A program made the translations under genes and the position numbers. A stretch of 54,747 nt of DNA, from positions 1 through 54,747 of the forward strand of contig MFRN01000026.1 of NCBI GenBank assembly GCA_001784585.1. The letters run 5' to 3'. Below the pieces are notes generated by a model. It was not told the origin of the DNA and did not search any database. It saw nothing but the letters and a program-made list of their open reading frames with translations. The stretch comes from Candidatus Melainabacteria bacterium RIFCSPLOWO2_02_FULL_35_15 (GTDB lineage Bacteria > Cyanobacteriota > Vampirovibrionia > 2-02-FULL-35-15). Shown here piece by piece: positions 2,821-47,262 of this stretch (its first letter is position 1; every line of letters starts with the position of its first letter).

Positions 2821-4084
2821 AAACTTTATTCAAACCAAACAAGACTCTCAAAAACTTTCTGATGAAGACATAAATTACTTTATTAAAAACTTAGATGACT
2901 TTTCTCAAGATGAGATTACTCAATGGCTAAAAGCAGTAAAAGCAAATGGTTTAGATGATGATGAAACATCTGCACTAACACTAGCAATGGCAAAATCAGG
3001 AAATATCCTGGACTGGAAAGAGCTGGAACCTACCGTAGATAAACACAGCACAGGAGGTATAGGAGATAAGATAACGCTTCTTTTTGTACCGCTGATTGCT
3101 GCATATGGAATTAATATTCCAAAGTTATCAGGCAGATCTCTTGGAATTACAGGTGGAACTATTGATAAGTTAGAGTCAATACCAGGCTTTAAAACAAATC
3201 TTTCCATTAGTGAAATAAAGGAACAGGTTAAAAAAATTGGATTAGCTGTATGCAGTACCAGTTCTGATCTGGCTCCGGCTGATAAAAAACTTTATTCAAT
3301 TCGTGATGTAACAGACACAATAGACTCCATTCCTTTAATTGCTTCATCTATTATGAGTAAAAAAATTGCTGTTGGATCGAAAAATATTATTCTCGATGTA
3401 AAAGCTGGCTCAGGTGCATTTATGAAAACCATTAAAGATGCAAAATTACTTGCAAATAAGATGGTAAATATCGGTAAAAATTTAAATAAAAATATTAAAG
3501 CTGTTGTTACTGATATGAATGAACCGCTTGGACACAAGATTGGAAATGCTCTTGAGATAAAAGAGGTTATTGAAGTTCTTTCAGGAAAAGAGATTGACGA
3601 CTTGACTGAAATTGTAATTTACCTGGCAAAGGAAACAATAAACCTTATAAATCCAGATGAAAAGTCAAAAGAAGAAAAACTAAAACATTTATTTCTAAAT
3701 GGAAGTGTACTGAAAAAATTTGAAGAAATGGTAAAAGCCCAGGGTGGGAATTTAAATATTGATTTACCAAAGGCAAGATATATTGAAGTCTTAAAAAGTA
3801 AGTCAGACGGCTATATACAAAAATTAGATGCTCAAACTGTCGGTGAAGCAGTTTTTAATTTAGGCGCAGGAAGGAAGTCAGTGTCAGACAGTATTGATCA
3901 TTCAGTTGGAATAGTGCTTTTAAAAAACCATGGTAATAAAGTTATAAAAGATGAGCCTTTGCTTGAGATTCATGCAAAAAGCAAAGAAGATGCAGATAAA
4001 GTAAAAGAAAAATTACTATCAGGTATAATTTTTGGACAAAACCCGTCACCTAAATTAAAATTAATTCATGAGATTATAAAATGA
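2810..4084 (+). CDS. pdp: Pyrimidine-nucleoside (thymidine) phosphorylase
   Basis: The enzyme splits thymidine, deoxyuridine or uridine with phosphate to the base and (deoxy)ribose-1-phosphate, for nucleoside salvage in the cytosol. The sequence carries the family phosphate-binding motif KHSTGGIGDK, then SGRSLGITGGTIDKLE, and SIPLIASSIMSKK around the nucleoside site. The length (424 residues) is typical. It aligns by eye more closely with Bacillus-type Pdp than with E. coli DeoA, so either name could be used. The start at 2810 overlaps yebC by 11 nt, and the stop overlaps the next start as ATGA at 4081, which indicates one transcription unit of yebC, pdp and the Yip1-like gene. Confidence 0.92.
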   Translation: MQIKNFIQTKQDSQKLSDEDINYFIKNLDDFSQDEITQWLKAVKANGLDDDETSALTLAMAKSGNILDWKELEPTVDKHSTGGIGDKITLLFVPLIAAYGINIPKLSGRSLGITGGTIDKLESIPGFKTNLSISEIKEQVKKIGLAVCSTSSDLAPADKKLYSIRDVTDTIDSIPLIASSIMSKKIAVGSKNIILDVKAGSGAFMKTIKDAKLLANKMVNIGKNLNKNIKAVVTDMNEPLGHKIGNALEIKEVIEVLSGKEIDDLTEIVIYLAKETINLINPDEKSKEEKLKHLFLNGSVLKKFEEMVKAQGGNLNIDLPKARYIEVLKSKSDGYIQKLDAQTVGEAVFNLGAGRKSVSDSIDHSVGIVLLKNHGNKVIKDEPLLEIHAKSKEDADKVKEKLLSGIIFGQNPSPKLKLIHEIIK

Positions 4085-43113: not shown

Positions 43114-43827
43114 TCAAATCTTCTCCTTTTGTATAATTTCCTCAGCTGTAGCAAGGGCTTCTTTTGTATCTATTGCCAAGACAAAACTATCTGTTAAATA
43201 TCCTTTTATTATAATTCCTTTAGAAATTAATTCCGGGAAAATATCTTTACCAAAGTCAGAAGCAGCATTATTAGGAATCATATTTAAAATGTCCGGTTCT
43301 AAAATATAGACCCCTGCATTTACATATCCTTCTATACTATTTCCTCTTCCCTCAATAAAAGAATCTATCACATTATTTCCTGTAATCTTTATAACACCAC
43401 CAGCAATACCTGAATTTAAAGCTTCTTTAGGATTAAACAAAGCTATAGTCACTTTAGAATTCTGAGAAATGTGGAAATCTAACATTTCGCTTAGATTTAA
43501 ATTTGTATAATTATCCCCATAAATAACAAAGAATCTTTCATTCTTAATAAACCATTCTGCATTTTTTACTGCTCCACTAGTACCTAAAGGTTTATTTTCC
43601 AAAGAATACTGAATATTTATATTCCATTTATCCCCATTACCAAAATAATTTTTAATGACTTCAGGTAGATGGTAAACAAGCACACAAATATCTTTTATAT
43701 TATGCTTTTTCAAAAGTAAAATATTATGTTCTAAAATAGGTTTGCCAGCTACCTCATACATTGGCTTTGGTATATTTTCAATGTTCAGTCTTTTCCCGAA
43801 TCCACCAGCAAGTATAAATGCTTTCAT
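43114..43827 (-). CDS. hddC: D-glycero-D-manno-heptose 1-phosphate guanylyltransferase-like
   Basis: A sugar-1-phosphate nucleotidyltransferase with the signature FILAGGFGKRLNIENIPKPM and a metal-binding FFVIYGDNYTNLNL. It is 237 residues long, typical of HddC and related short transferases. With GHMP kinase, SIS isomerase and HAD phosphatase genes around it, GTP use and GDP-heptose as product are the best reading. The nucleotide specificity is inferred. GAGGA lies 6 nt before the ATG. It heads a seven-gene minus-strand run ending at 37047. Confidence 0.8.
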   Translation of the reverse strand: MKAFILAGGFGKRLNIENIPKPMYEVAGKPILEHNILLLKKHNIKDICVLVYHLPEVIKNYFGNGDKWNINIQYSLENKPLGTSGAVKNAEWFIKNERFFVIYGDNYTNLNLSEMLDFHISQNSKVTIALFNPKEALNSGIAGGVIKITGNNVIDSFIEGRGNSIEGYVNAGVYILEPDILNMIPNNAASDFGKDIFPELISKGIIIKGYLTDSFVLAIDTKEALATAEEIIQKEKI

Positions 43828-43885
43828 TTTAGTTCCTCAAGATACAAGGATATCACTGCCAAACATTAGTTTTTAAATTTGGGTA

Positions 43886-43980
43886 TATAATCTAGTAAAA
43901 TGAGTTACAAAGATTTGAACCACATAAAAACATACTTAGAACAAACATCAAAAATTGCACTAATGCTTGATAGAGACTAA
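43886..43980 (+). pseudogene. Copy A: decayed promoter and 5' end of gmhA
   Basis: TATAAT at 43886-43891 (inside TTGGGTATATAAT, identical over 13 bases to the gmhA promoter) is followed by a frame that stays open from an ATG at 43900 to TAA at 43978. Bases 43915-43971 match the first 19 codons of gmhA (46645-46701) at 50 of 57 positions; three of the differing codons are synonymous. The aligned ATG is TTG here. The rest of gmhA is missing. It lies directly upstream of ATPase 1. Confidence 0.85.
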
Positions 43981-44037: not shown

Positions 44038-45183
44038 ATGTTTACAAGAACCATATCAAAATTTATAAAGTCATCAAAAAAAAGCATTCTTTTACTTGGG
44101 CCAAGGCAGGTTGGAAAGTCTACTTTAATCAAGAGCTTATCGCCAGCTCTGAAAATCAACTTAGCATTAGAGGATACTTTTCTGGATTTTGCAAGCAATC
44201 CAAAGGAGCTAACAGATAAACTATCACAGGTAAAATATCAAACTGTTTTTATTGATGAAATACAAAGATTACCCGGATTGCTAAACACTATACAAGCTAT
44301 ACTTGACGACAGCAAAAAGCCGTTAAAATTTTATTTAACAGGTTCAAGTGCAAGAAAATTAAAAAGGGGTAAAGCAAATCTTTTGCCAGGGAGAATTCAC
44401 ACATATTATTTATTTCCTCTCACTGCCAAAGAACTAAATTATGAGCTTGATTTACATGAAGTATTATCTACTGGCTCCTTACCTGGCATCTTAACTGAGA
44501 AAGAAAAAAAAGAAAAATATAAAACATTACGCTCATATGCATCTGTTTATTTAAAAGAAGAGATTCAAGCTGAAGCTCTTACAAAAAACATAGAAGGATT
44601 TTCCAGATTTTTGTTTGTAGTTGCAGCTGAAGCCGGTAAATTTTTAGATATTTCAAAGATTTCAAGAGAAGCAAGACTCCCATGGCAAACGACTTTAAGA
44701 TATTTTGAAATTTTAGAGGATACTTTAATTATTCAGCGTTGCGAGTCATTCAGTAAGTCTGAAAGAAAACGTTTAGTTCAGTGTCCACGATTTTTCTTTT
44801 TTGATATTGGTGTTTTAAACGCTTTATTAGGAAATTTTAACCTGTCGCCAGATCGCATAGGAATACTATTTGAGCATTTGATTTTTAATCAGATTGTACA
44901 TAGTGCAGCTGCACTAGACAAAGACATTAGAATATCTTCTTACAGAACCGGACATGGAGCTGAAATAGATTTTATCGTGGAATTAGAAGGAGAAGTATAT
45001 GCAATAGAAGCAAAAGCATCAAGAAACATTGGACTATCAGATCTTCGTGGTTTTCAAAGTTTTAAAGAGTTTTATAAAAAACCTCATAAGTGTTATGTAG
45101 CTTACCTTGGTGATTCTGCTAAAAAAATCAATGGCATAACTATACTTCCCTGGATAGAACTAATTAAAGAGCTGGATTTATAG
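44038..45183 (+). CDS. AAA ATPase with DUF4143 C-terminal domain (ATPase 1)
   Basis: Walker A is LLLGPRQVGKST (about residues 18-29) and Walker B is VFIDEIQRLP, followed by the sensor phrase FYLTGSSARKLKRG. This is the AAA_14 plus DUF4143 architecture. The C-terminal domain ends with a PD-(D/E)XK-like core: GHGAEIDFIV and then YAIEAKAS (Asp, then Glu-x-Lys). A winged-helix-like stretch (ISKISREARLPWQTTLRYFEIL) lies between. I chose the ATG at 44038 (381 residues); the in-frame GTG/ATG at 43999/44002 would add 12-13. The function of this family is not established. The gene sits between the two arms of the heptose locus and is flanked by gmhA fragments. Confidence 0.88.
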   Translation: MFTRTISKFIKSSKKSILLLGPRQVGKSTLIKSLSPALKINLALEDTFLDFASNPKELTDKLSQVKYQTVFIDEIQRLPGLLNTIQAILDDSKKPLKFYLTGSSARKLKRGKANLLPGRIHTYYLFPLTAKELNYELDLHEVLSTGSLPGILTEKEKKEKYKTLRSYASVYLKEEIQAEALTKNIEGFSRFLFVVAAEAGKFLDISKISREARLPWQTTLRYFEILEDTLIIQRCESFSKSERKRLVQCPRFFFFDIGVLNALLGNFNLSPDRIGILFEHLIFNQIVHSAAALDKDIRISSYRTGHGAEIDFIVELEGEVYAIEAKASRNIGLSDLRGFQSFKEFYKKPHKCYVAYLGDSAKKINGITILPWIELIKELDL

Positions 45184-45243: not shown

Positions 45244-45303
45244 TATAATGTAGTAAAAGGAATCACAAAGATTTGAACCACATAAAAACCTACTTAGAAC
45301 AAA
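45244..45303 (+). pseudogene. Copy B: second decayed promoter and 5' end of gmhA
   Basis: TATAAT at 45244-45249 is followed by sequence that matches copy A at 38 of 39 bases (45265-45303 against 43907-43945). It therefore also matches the first 9-10 codons of gmhA. The aligned start is TTG (45273), with AAGGA about 10 nt upstream. After 45303 the similarity ends. The upstream ACATTAGTTT at about 45200 is also shared with copy A. It lies between ATPase 1 and ATPase 2. Confidence 0.8.
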
Positions 45304-45357: not shown

Positions 45358-46491
45358 ATGTATTCTAGACTTCTACAATCTCCCCTGAAAGGAAAGCAAA
45401 GTTTCTTTATCTTTGGTGCAAGAGGAACAGGAAAAAGTTTCTGGATAAATAATGAAGTAAAAGAAAAAATCGTTATAGATCTACTTGATTCAGATATTAA
45501 TTTTGATCTTGAGGCACACCCCAAAAAATTAGAAAATTACATACCACAAAATTATAATGGATGGATAGTAATTGATGAAATACAAAAAATCCCTTCTTTA
45601 TTAGATGAAGTTCACAGATTAATTGAAAAAAGAAGGGTTAAGTTTATTTTGACAGGATCAAGCGCAAGAAAATTAAAAAGAAAAGGTTCAAATTTACTTG
45701 CTGGAAGAGCTTTGATTTATAGAATGTATCCACTAACCACAAAAGAGTTAGGTAAAGATTTTGATTTATATAAGTCTTTATTATATGGACAATTACCACA
45801 GATATACAATGAACCTGGAATTAACTCTGATAAATATTTAAATTCATATGTGAAAACTTATCTAAAGGAAGAAGGACTTAGCAGAAATTTAGGCGCTTTT
45901 TCAAGATTTCTAGAAGCAGCAAGTTTTTCGCAAGGCTCGGTTTTAAACATGAGTGAAGTTGCCAGAGAAGCTGGAATAAAACAAAAAACTGTAGAGGGTT
46001 ATTTTGATTTACTTGAAGATATGCTTTTAAGTTATAGAATACCCATTTTTACAAGGAGAGCAAAGCGTAGATTAATAGCTCATCCAAAGTTCTATTTTTT
46101 TGATGTGGGGATTTTTCGAACATTAAGACCAAAAGGAATCCTAGATAAAAAAGAAGAAATAGATGGGCCTGCCCTTGAAACATTGGTTTTACAAGAGCTA
46201 ATAGCTTTAAACGATTACTATGACCTGGGTTATGAAATGTACTATTGGCGAACAAGCCACGGAGCCGAGGTAGATTTTATACTTTATGGACCTAAAGGAT
46301 TAGTAGCTATTGAGATAAAAAGAGCAAAAAAAATACACTCTTCTGATTTGAACGGATTGAGATCTTTTGCAAAAGATTATAAAGAAGCAAAGCTGTATAT
46401 TTTTTACTGCGGTGATAAAAAAGAGTATCATGAAGATATTCAAGTAATCCCAATTACAAATGCATTTAAAACTCTTAAGGAATTTCTTTAG
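45358..46491 (+). CDS. AAA ATPase with DUF4143 C-terminal domain (ATPase 2)
   Basis: Same architecture as ATPase 1, 377 residues. Walker A is FIFGARGTGKSFWI, Walker B is IVIDEIQKIP, and the sensor phrase is FILTGSSARKLKRKG. A winged-helix-like segment is MSEVAREAGIKQKTVEGYFDLL. The C-terminal nuclease-like core is HGAEVDFIL and then LVAIEIKRAK. Outside the motifs the two ATPases differ at most positions, so they are old paralogues or separate acquisitions, not a recent copy. The gmhA fragments in front of them are by contrast almost identical. Function unknown. Confidence 0.88.
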   Translation: MYSRLLQSPLKGKQSFFIFGARGTGKSFWINNEVKEKIVIDLLDSDINFDLEAHPKKLENYIPQNYNGWIVIDEIQKIPSLLDEVHRLIEKRRVKFILTGSSARKLKRKGSNLLAGRALIYRMYPLTTKELGKDFDLYKSLLYGQLPQIYNEPGINSDKYLNSYVKTYLKEEGLSRNLGAFSRFLEAASFSQGSVLNMSEVAREAGIKQKTVEGYFDLLEDMLLSYRIPIFTRRAKRRLIAHPKFYFFDVGIFRTLRPKGILDKKEEIDGPALETLVLQELIALNDYYDLGYEMYYWRTSHGAEVDFILYGPKGLVAIEIKRAKKIHSSDLNGLRSFAKDYKEAKLYIFYCGDKKEYHEDIQVIPITNAFKTLKEFL

Positions 46492-46577
46492 AAAGCAAAA
46501 GAACCTGATTCAATGCATCTTGAGTAGCGATTGCTAATACAAATCATTACTAACACAAAAGAAGGAACCGAAGCCGC

Positions 46578-46623
46578 AACTATACTTCCCTGGATAGAAC
46601 TAATTAAAGAGTTGGGTATATAA
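46578..46623 (+). pseudogene. Remnant of the 3' end of a DUF4143 ATPase gene
   Basis: Bases 46578-46611 are identical over 34 nt to 45138-45171, the 3' end of ATPase 1. In frame they read TILPWIELIKELGI and stop (TAA 46621-46623), against TILPWIELIKELDL in ATPase 1. Nothing of the preceding gene body is present. The remnant runs straight into the gmhA -10 box, with which its stop codon overlaps. Confidence 0.85.
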
Positions 46624-46636
46624 TTTGCAACAGGAG
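46619..46636 (+). promoter_or_regulatory. gmhA -10 box and Shine-Dalgarno
   Basis: TATAAT at 46619-46624 and GGAG at 46633-46636, 8 nt before the ATG at 46645. At the position of this GGAG copy A has ATGAG, which opens the 43900 frame; copy B has AGGA. Confidence 0.55.
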
Positions 46637-46644
46637 ACAAAGTA

Positions 46645-47262
46645 ATGAACTACATAAAAACTTATCTGGAACAAACATCAAAAATTGCACAAATGCTTGA
46701 TCAGGAACAAATTCATCTAGCAATAAATATTCTTTTAAATGTAAGAAACGAAAAAGGCCGACTATTTATTCTGGGGGTTGGCGGTAGTGCAGGAAATGCT
46801 TCACATGCAGTTAATGATTTTAGAAAAATAGCCGGGATTGAAGCTTATGCGCCTACGGACAATGTTTCAGAACTTACAGCCAGAGTAAATGATGACGGAT
46901 GGGATTCTGTTTTTTCCAGCTGGCTAAAGGTAAGTAACCTGAACTCAAAAGATGTTTTAATAATTTTTTCAGTCGGTGGCGGCAGTATAGAAAAAAACAT
47001 AAGTACAAATCTTGTTAAAGCCCTGAATCATGCAAAATCAGCTGGGGCAAAGACTATTGGTATAGTAAGCAGAAATGGCGGTTATACAAAAGAAGTTGCT
47101 GACTGCTGTATATTAATTCCTACATTAAGTCCGGAAACAGTAACACCACATGCAGAAGAATTTCAGGCAGTTGTCTGGCATTTATTAGTTTCACATCCTG
47201 AAATCCAAAAAAATCAGATGAAGTGGGAAAGCACTGTTCAGACAGTTTCTATAAACAAATGA
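46645..47262 (+). CDS. gmhA: Sedoheptulose-7-phosphate isomerase-like SIS protein
   Basis: A single SIS-domain protein of 205 residues with FILGVGGSAGNASHAVNDFRK, IFSVGGGSIEKNIS and TPHAEEFQAVVWHLL. GmhA converts sedoheptulose 7-phosphate to D-glycero-D-manno-heptose 7-phosphate. The fold fits, and the coupled gmhB gene, the transaldolase and the nearby hddA/hddC make this reading likely. The phosphate-loop sequence differs from E. coli GmhA. Its stop overlaps the gmhB start (ATGA at 47259). Partial copies of its 5' end occur at 43886 and 45244. Confidence 0.82.
   Translation: MNYIKTYLEQTSKIAQMLDQEQIHLAINILLNVRNEKGRLFILGVGGSAGNASHAVNDFRKIAGIEAYAPTDNVSELTARVNDDGWDSVFSSWLKVSNLNSKDVLIIFSVGGGSIEKNISTNLVKALNHAKSAGAKTIGIVSRNGGYTKEVADCCILIPTLSPETVTPHAEEFQAVVWHLLVSHPEIQKNQMKWESTVQTVSINK

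What the first reader, a model, noticed from the sequence alone, without database searches (positions are those of the whole stretch)
46578..46623. Scar of a third DUF4143 ATPase joined to the gmhA promoter
A 34-base perfect match to the ATPase 1 3' end, in frame and with its own stop, lies directly before gmhA. Its stop overlaps the gmhA -10 box. It shows that an ATPase gene of the ATPase 1 type once ended here, so at least three units existed, or that an exchange event left the tail.
Basis: seen in the sequence. Interest (0 to 1): 0.6.

Follow-up and report, generated by a model that had tools for sequence, protein, structure and literature searches.

The report
Jumping ATPase genes duplicate gene ends
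The 34-base scar before gmhA is real and best read as a by-product of single-gene ATPase-nuclease units (the family catalogued as phage-defence candidate PDC-S01) that move one gene at a time into the ends of other genes, often leaving a copy of that gene end on the far side; such flanking copies recur across several bacterial phyla.

Summary
In detail: 46578-46611 is a perfect 34-base copy of the ATPase 1 3' end, in frame, with a TAA inside the TATAAT box of gmhA, and it is not a genome repeat. The gmhA promoter plus 5' end (46612-46701) is also copied before ATPase 1 (43879-43971) and between the two ATPases (45244-45303). So each ATPase is flanked by duplicated target DNA, and the tail is most simply part of the duplication around ATPase 2. 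A third ATPase is possible but not required. The pattern is general. In 184 DUF4143 ATPase genes, 23 have strong direct repeats in their immediate flanks, against 0 of 247 control genes. Near-identical ATPases sit in unrelated places with homology ending at the promoter and stop codon, and a sister species holds a clean empty site (1.3 kb unit, about 3 nt shared). Duplications run from ~3 to ~140 nt. The family is PADLOC's PDC-S01, reported as the fourth commonest 'defence' in prokaryotes but untested. Single-gene mobility is well supported. That the AAA+-PD-(D/E)XK protein drives it is inference. Long duplications also flank a few other small genes, so a general insertion process is not excluded.

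The parts
43114..43827 (-). hddC-like nucleotidyltransferase, left neighbour of the array
   Evidence: Pfam NTP_transferase 1.4e-32; conserved with hddA next to gmhA in G008
43879..43971 (+). P1: displaced copy of the gmhA promoter and first 19 codons, left of ATPase 1
   Evidence: 83% to 46612-46701 over 93 nt, 92% to P2 over 60 nt
44038..45183 (+). ATPase 1: AAA_14 + DUF4143 (PADLOC PDC-S01), Walker A/B and D...ExK motifs
   Evidence: AlphaFold model pLDDT 86.6, Foldseek to clamp loader/RuvB AAA+ and CRISPR ancillary nucleases
45138..45183 (+). ATPase 1 3' end, the copy inside the intact gene
45244..45303 (+). P2: second displaced copy of the gmhA promoter and about 10 codons, between the ATPases
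45358..46491 (+). ATPase 2: AAA_14 + DUF4143, 36-37% identical to ATPase 1
46508..46561 (-). relic of an hddC-like C-terminus (FVLAIATQDALN) in the spacer after ATPase 2
   Evidence: 76% over 55 columns to G008 hddC, 0 of 2000 shuffles
46578..46623 (+). the finding: second copy of the ATPase 1 3' end, ending in TAA inside the gmhA -10 box
46612..46701 (+). P3: gmhA promoter (GGGTATATAAT, conserved before gmhA in related genera) and first 19 codons, the working copy
46645..47262 (+). gmhA-like sedoheptulose-7-phosphate isomerase (SIS domain), the gene whose 5' end is duplicated
   Evidence: Pfam SIS_2 7.8e-12; NCBIfam gmhA 2.5e-17, below its cut-off; orthologs in relatives

Best explanation
DUF4143 ATPase genes behave as single-gene mobile units of about 1.25 kb: a compact promoter, often with a palindrome over it, plus the coding sequence up to just past the stop. 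A unit inserts preferentially into spacers and gene ends. The target is often duplicated (from ~3 nt to ~140 nt), so the hit gene end is restored on one side and its displaced copy stays on the other. At gmhA this happened at least twice. ATPase 1 landed in the gmhA 5' region (leaving P1 and P2/P3). ATPase 2 then landed at the ATPase 1-gmhA junction and duplicated it; the right-hand copy is the tail 46578-46623 joined to P3. The gmhA end at P3 was probably exchanged or trimmed later. Shown: the duplications, the statistics, the mobility of the same gene between unrelated sites, an empty site. Inferred: the order of events at gmhA, and that the AAA+-nuclease protein cuts the target with a wide stagger and so drives its own insertion.
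For: Both ATPases in the window are flanked by copies of target DNA. Immediate-flank direct repeats >=50 bits: 23/184 ATPases vs 0/247 other genes, Fisher p 1.4e-9. Of 46 local repeat pairs spaced 0.8-2 kb, 29 enclose a whole ATPase vs 4.9 expected. Gene ends duplicated: UDG 3' end 73 nt, thiE 5' end 35 nt with uninterrupted rnd-thiE junctions in four relatives, transketolase 3' end, ADP-ribosylglycohydrolase-like 5' end, groEL end region, and in Prevotella a 137-nt repeat directly abutting the unit. The same ATPase gene at 86-92% DNA identity in unrelated contexts, matches ending at promoter and stop. Empty site L277 vs filled L218 in sister species, 1.3 kb unit. Up to 43 copies per genome. 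Invariant Walker and D..ExK residues.
Against: Most ATPases (161/184) show no strong flanking duplication, and the two empty sites found show about 3 nt (L218) and none (L228, a two-gene insert). Long flanking repeats also surround other small genes: PIN modules, AlbA_2-, Uma2- and AAA-ATPase_like-type genes, so the process may not be specific to this protein. At gmhA the tail copies are identical over 34 nt while P2 and P3 differ at 7 of 32, which a single duplication without later exchange does not explain. The hddC relic also needs an extra step.
Confidence: 0.6

Rival explanations
1. The ATPases are passive cargo: single-gene defence systems (PDC-S01) acquired by transformation or other transfer and integrated by a general illegitimate or homology-facilitated process that duplicates target ends, then kept by selection for phage defence.
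For: PADLOC files the family as single-gene phage defence candidate PDC-S01, very common in prokaryotes (PMC12988326). Similar long duplications flank unrelated small genes. Duplication lengths vary widely.
Against: Two copies at 90.5% DNA identity sit in different places of one genome (L067/L068) and genomes carry up to 43 copies, which fits multiplication within genomes. Units carry no linked cargo. Defence is not demonstrated: validation is described as pending for most such candidates.
Confidence: 0.3
2. The tail is the remnant of a third, ATPase 1-type gene that stood directly before gmhA and was lost by a deletion running from an hddC copy to near its 3' end.
For: The spacer holds an hddC C-terminal relic followed by the tail, colinear with hddC-P1-ATPase 1 in the window.
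Against: The hddC relic is only ~72% identical to the window hddC over 29 nt while the tail is 100% over 34 nt, so they are unlikely to come from one duplication. No other ATPase sequence is in the spacer.
Confidence: 0.25
3. The tail arose by exchange of the gmhA end: recombination with another gmhA allele joined a foreign promoter and 5' end to an ATPase 1 stub at a microhomology (GGATTTATA / GGGTATATA).
For: P3 is closest to the G001 gmhA 5' end (4/57 differences) while P1 and P2 resemble each other (2/32) more than P3. The junction shows a short similarity (sequence).
Against: The stretches are short. This explains the P3 side but not why an ATPase 1 end lay there in the first place, so it is an addition to the duplication model rather than a replacement.
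Confidence: 0.2

Closest known systems
PDC-S01, phage defence candidate (PADLOC-DB 2.0; AAA_14 PF13173 + DUF4143 PF13635, COG1373-type)
   Same: Same domain architecture and profile matches; described as ATPase fused to a PD-(D/E)XK member (PMC12988326).
   Different: Known only as a defence candidate proposed from its embedding in other systems. Mobility as a single-gene unit and duplicated gene ends are not mentioned in the passages read. Mobility could itself produce embedding.
Genomic islands and phages that integrate at gene ends with a tyrosine recombinase
   Same: Gene end restored by a copy, displaced copy on the far side, tandem accretion (own knowledge of the class).
   Different: No integrase in the 1.2-1.3 kb unit; the target gene differs at every insertion; the duplicated length is not fixed.
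Insertion sequences (DDE transposons)
   Same: Small mobile unit, target duplication.
   Different: No transposase gene; duplication length varies from ~3 to ~140 nt; no terminal inverted repeats seen at the two best-defined units (L204, L218).
Free-standing homing endonuclease genes
   Same: Single selfish-looking nuclease gene, frequent horizontal movement (own knowledge).
   Different: Here copies lie at unrelated sites and the target is duplicated, instead of copying into one cognate site.

Membership tests
PDC-S01 / DUF4143 ATPase family | AAA_14 ATPase domain followed by DUF4143 | tested here: met
   Both domains far above cut-off in both window proteins; PDC-S01 profiles 4e-64 and 4e-59
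PDC-S01 / DUF4143 ATPase family | Intact ATPase and PD-(D/E)XK-type residues | tested here: met
   Invariant G26 K27, D73 E74, D311, E324, K326 in 11 members; AAA+ fold with matches to CRISPR ancillary nucleases
PDC-S01 as anti-phage defence | Protection against phage | not testable with these tools
   Needs an experiment; the literature describes validation as pending for most such candidates (PMC12988326)
Mobile genetic element | Same unit in unrelated sites with sharp ends | tested here: met
   Six gene pairs at 82-92% identity, homology limited to promoter plus CDS in the clear cases
Mobile genetic element | Filled and empty site in close relatives | tested here: met
   L218 (G028) vs L277 (G033); L228 vs L299 is a two-gene insert
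Insertion sequence (DDE) | Fixed short target duplication | tested here: not met
   ~3 nt, 35, 36, 66, 73, 126, 137 nt
Insertion sequence (DDE) | Terminal inverted repeats and a transposase | tested here: not met
   Unit holds only the ATPase gene; no inverted repeats seen by eye at the ends of L204 and L218
Integrase-type gene-end element | Site-specific recombinase in the element | tested here: not met
   No other gene fits in the 1.2-1.3 kb units
Homing endonuclease gene | Insertion at one cognate site | tested here: not met
   Targets include gmhA, clpC, UDG, thiE, transketolase and groEL regions

The most novel reading that the evidence does not exclude
PDC-S01 is not, or not only, a defence system but an autonomous single-gene mobile element of a new type: an AAA+-PD-(D/E)XK protein that makes a wide, variable staggered cut in the target and inserts its own promoter-plus-gene unit, duplicating up to ~140 nt. 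Its 'embedding' in defence loci would then partly reflect mobility.
Probability: 0.33. Interest if true: 0.87.

Novelty: new variant of a known kind. Interest (0 to 1): 0.62.

Why it matters
The DUF4143/PDC-S01 family is counted among the commonest 'defence systems' of bacteria and archaea on genomic-context evidence alone. If its genes jump one by one and leave duplicated gene ends, context evidence needs re-reading, and a simple experiment (does the gene transpose, does the nuclease site matter) becomes the test. It also explains odd gene-end scars, duplicated promoters and fused tails, such as the one before gmhA.

Tried and rejected
A common genomic repeat as the source of the tail: rejected. 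Decayed third ATPase in the spacer: no significant similarity. A precise site-specific breakpoint at gmhA codon 19 (also suggested by a G010 contig ending there): dropped, because P2 ends at codon ~10 and the P1 homology may run further. Thermus plasmids as strain-level empty sites: confounded by IS elements. Moraxella, Agrobacterium, Acinetobacter and Rhizobium plasmid copies: no clear duplication. Prevotella empty site for L204: could not be searched from that locus. AAA-ATPase_like family as a second test set: too few copies here. Literature: DUF4143, COG1373, PF13635, PDC-S01, guilt-by-embedding; no description of mobility with duplicated gene ends was found, but most subscription papers are not held.

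Full report
OBSERVATION. The window is contig 26 of a 1.94 Mb genome. The repeat is as described: 46578-46611 is identical to 45138-45171, the match extends at 93% over 45 nt, it is in the ATPase 1 frame, and its TAA (46621-46623) lies inside the TATAAT box of gmhA. It is not a dispersed repeat. The promoter GGGTATA(TAAT) belongs to gmhA: it precedes gmhA in most related genera that have quite different upstream genes.

The gmhA promoter and 5' end occur three times: P1 43879-43971 left of ATPase 1, P2 45244-45303 between the ATPases, P3 46612-46701 at the working gene. The layout is hddC(-) | P1 | ATPase 1, tail | P2 | ATPase 2 | spacer | tail' P3 gmhA. Each ATPase is therefore bracketed by copies of the same target DNA: ATPase 1 by P1 and P2/P3, ATPase 2 by tail+P2 on the left and tail'+P3 on the right.

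GENERALITY. Ten full copies of the family lie in this genome, and up to 43 in relatives. Around 55 ATPases of the family-level relatives, 13 have a direct repeat of >=50 bits within 400 nt of both ends, versus 0 of 122 other genes in the same stretches. In another family the count is 3/52 (controls 0/25), and in a multi-phylum panel from public genomes 7/77 (controls 0/100). Pooled, 23/184 versus 0/247, p = 1.4e-9. Looking from the repeats instead: of 46 local repeat pairs spaced 0.8-2 kb, 29 enclose a whole ATPase, 4.9 expected. A few repeats belong to dispersed families (for example the element shared by L078-L091), so not every one is a target duplication.

ANATOMY OF THE UNIT. The same ATPase gene (86-92% DNA identity) is found in unrelated contexts in different genera, and twice in one genome (L067/L068); in the clear cases homology begins at the -35 box and stops just past the stop codon. 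A palindrome overlaps many promoters (score >=9 in 37% versus 1.8% of shuffles). In cases where the duplication abuts the unit, the 5' gap is mostly 25-95 nt (243-248 in two), the 3' gap 0-86 nt and the unit about 1.2-1.45 kb. Clean examples: Prevotella L204 (137 nt: the end of the upstream gene and the promoter of the next, both restored); L065 (66 nt); L068 (UDG 3' end, 73 nt); L071 (thiE start, 35 nt, with rnd and thiE directly adjoining in four relatives); L142 (transketolase end); L161 (start of an ADP-ribosylglycohydrolase-like gene); L163 (groEL end region); L224 (promoter and start of a neighbouring ATPase, the same event type as at gmhA).

EMPTY SITE. In sister species G033 (88% identical) the flanks of the G028 copy L218 are joined; the filled site has a 1.3 kb unit with only about 3 nt shared at the edges. 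A second site, L228/L299, is a two-gene insert without a clear duplication. So long duplications are frequent but not obligatory.

PROTEIN. Eleven members share Walker A, Walker B and D..ExK residues. The model (pLDDT 86.6) matches clamp-loader/RuvB AAA+ proteins and, more weakly, CRISPR ancillary nucleases. PADLOC names the family PDC-S01. PMC12988326 calls it the fourth commonest defence in prokaryotes, describes an ATPase fused to a PD-(D/E)XK member, says the PDCs were found by embedding, and says validation is pending for most of them.

HISTORY AT gmhA. Best reading: ATPase 1 inserted in the gmhA 5' region, then ATPase 2 at the ATPase 1-gmhA junction, duplicating it; the tail is the right-hand copy. 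Complications: the tail copies are identical over 34 nt, but P2 and P3 differ at 7/32 while P1 and P2 differ at 2/32, and P3 is nearest to the G001 gmhA. So gmhA or its 5' end was probably exchanged later, or the array arrived with a foreign gmhA end. The spacer carries a relic of an hddC C-terminus (FVLAIATQDALN) closer to the G008 hddC than to the hddC of the window. In G008 the hddC-gmhA interval also holds two other DUF4143 genes (L085), so it is a hot spot.

MECHANISM AND LIMITS. Shown: duplicated flanks, enrichment, mobility, an empty site. Inferred: a wide staggered break made by the protein itself. Other small genes (PIN modules at the MGMT end in L008, AAA-ATPase_like L226, AlbA_2 L187, Uma2 L171) also sit between long repeats (most of these family names were read from the sequences, not scanned), so a general insertion process that favours small nuclease or toxin genes is a serious rival.

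Noticed in passing
L008 (G000:C33) 91-150, 886-945, 1724-1787: The 3' end of an alkyltransferase (MGMT-like) gene is present three times, with PIN-type toxin-like units between the copies: the same logic with a different cargo.
   Followed up: partly
L226 (G028:C62) 421-662 and 3152-3393: A 242-nt, 95% identical direct repeat brackets an AAA-ATPase_like gene (PF09820 matches at this place), a different ATPase family.
   Followed up: partly
L053 (G009:C5) about 1460-1670: A 147-nt relic, 80% identical to ATPase 1, lies directly before an O-methyltransferase gene after an ATPase-like promoter and start: an internally deleted ATPase at a gene start.
   Followed up: partly
window 46508-46561: Antisense relic of an hddC-like nucleotidyltransferase C-terminus between ATPase 2 and the tail.
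   Followed up: yes
L085 (G008:C12): The hddC-gmhA interval of another genus also carries two DUF4143 ATPases of a different subgroup.
   Followed up: partly
L028 (G010:C8 end): A contig ends exactly at gmhA codon 19, as if the gmhA 5' end were repeated in that genome too.
   Followed up: no
L254 (Simkania negevensis plasmid pSn): A DUF4143-type ATPase lies between two diverged copies of a site-specific integrase gene (79% over 322 nt).
   Followed up: no
upstream of many ATPases: Palindromes with arms up to 18 bp overlap the promoter, with starts that look nearly leaderless; possible operator or recognition site.
   Followed up: partly
L066, L073 and L097: A 550-690 nt stretch, 76-79% identical, lies beside ATPases in three genomes; not identified.
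   Followed up: no
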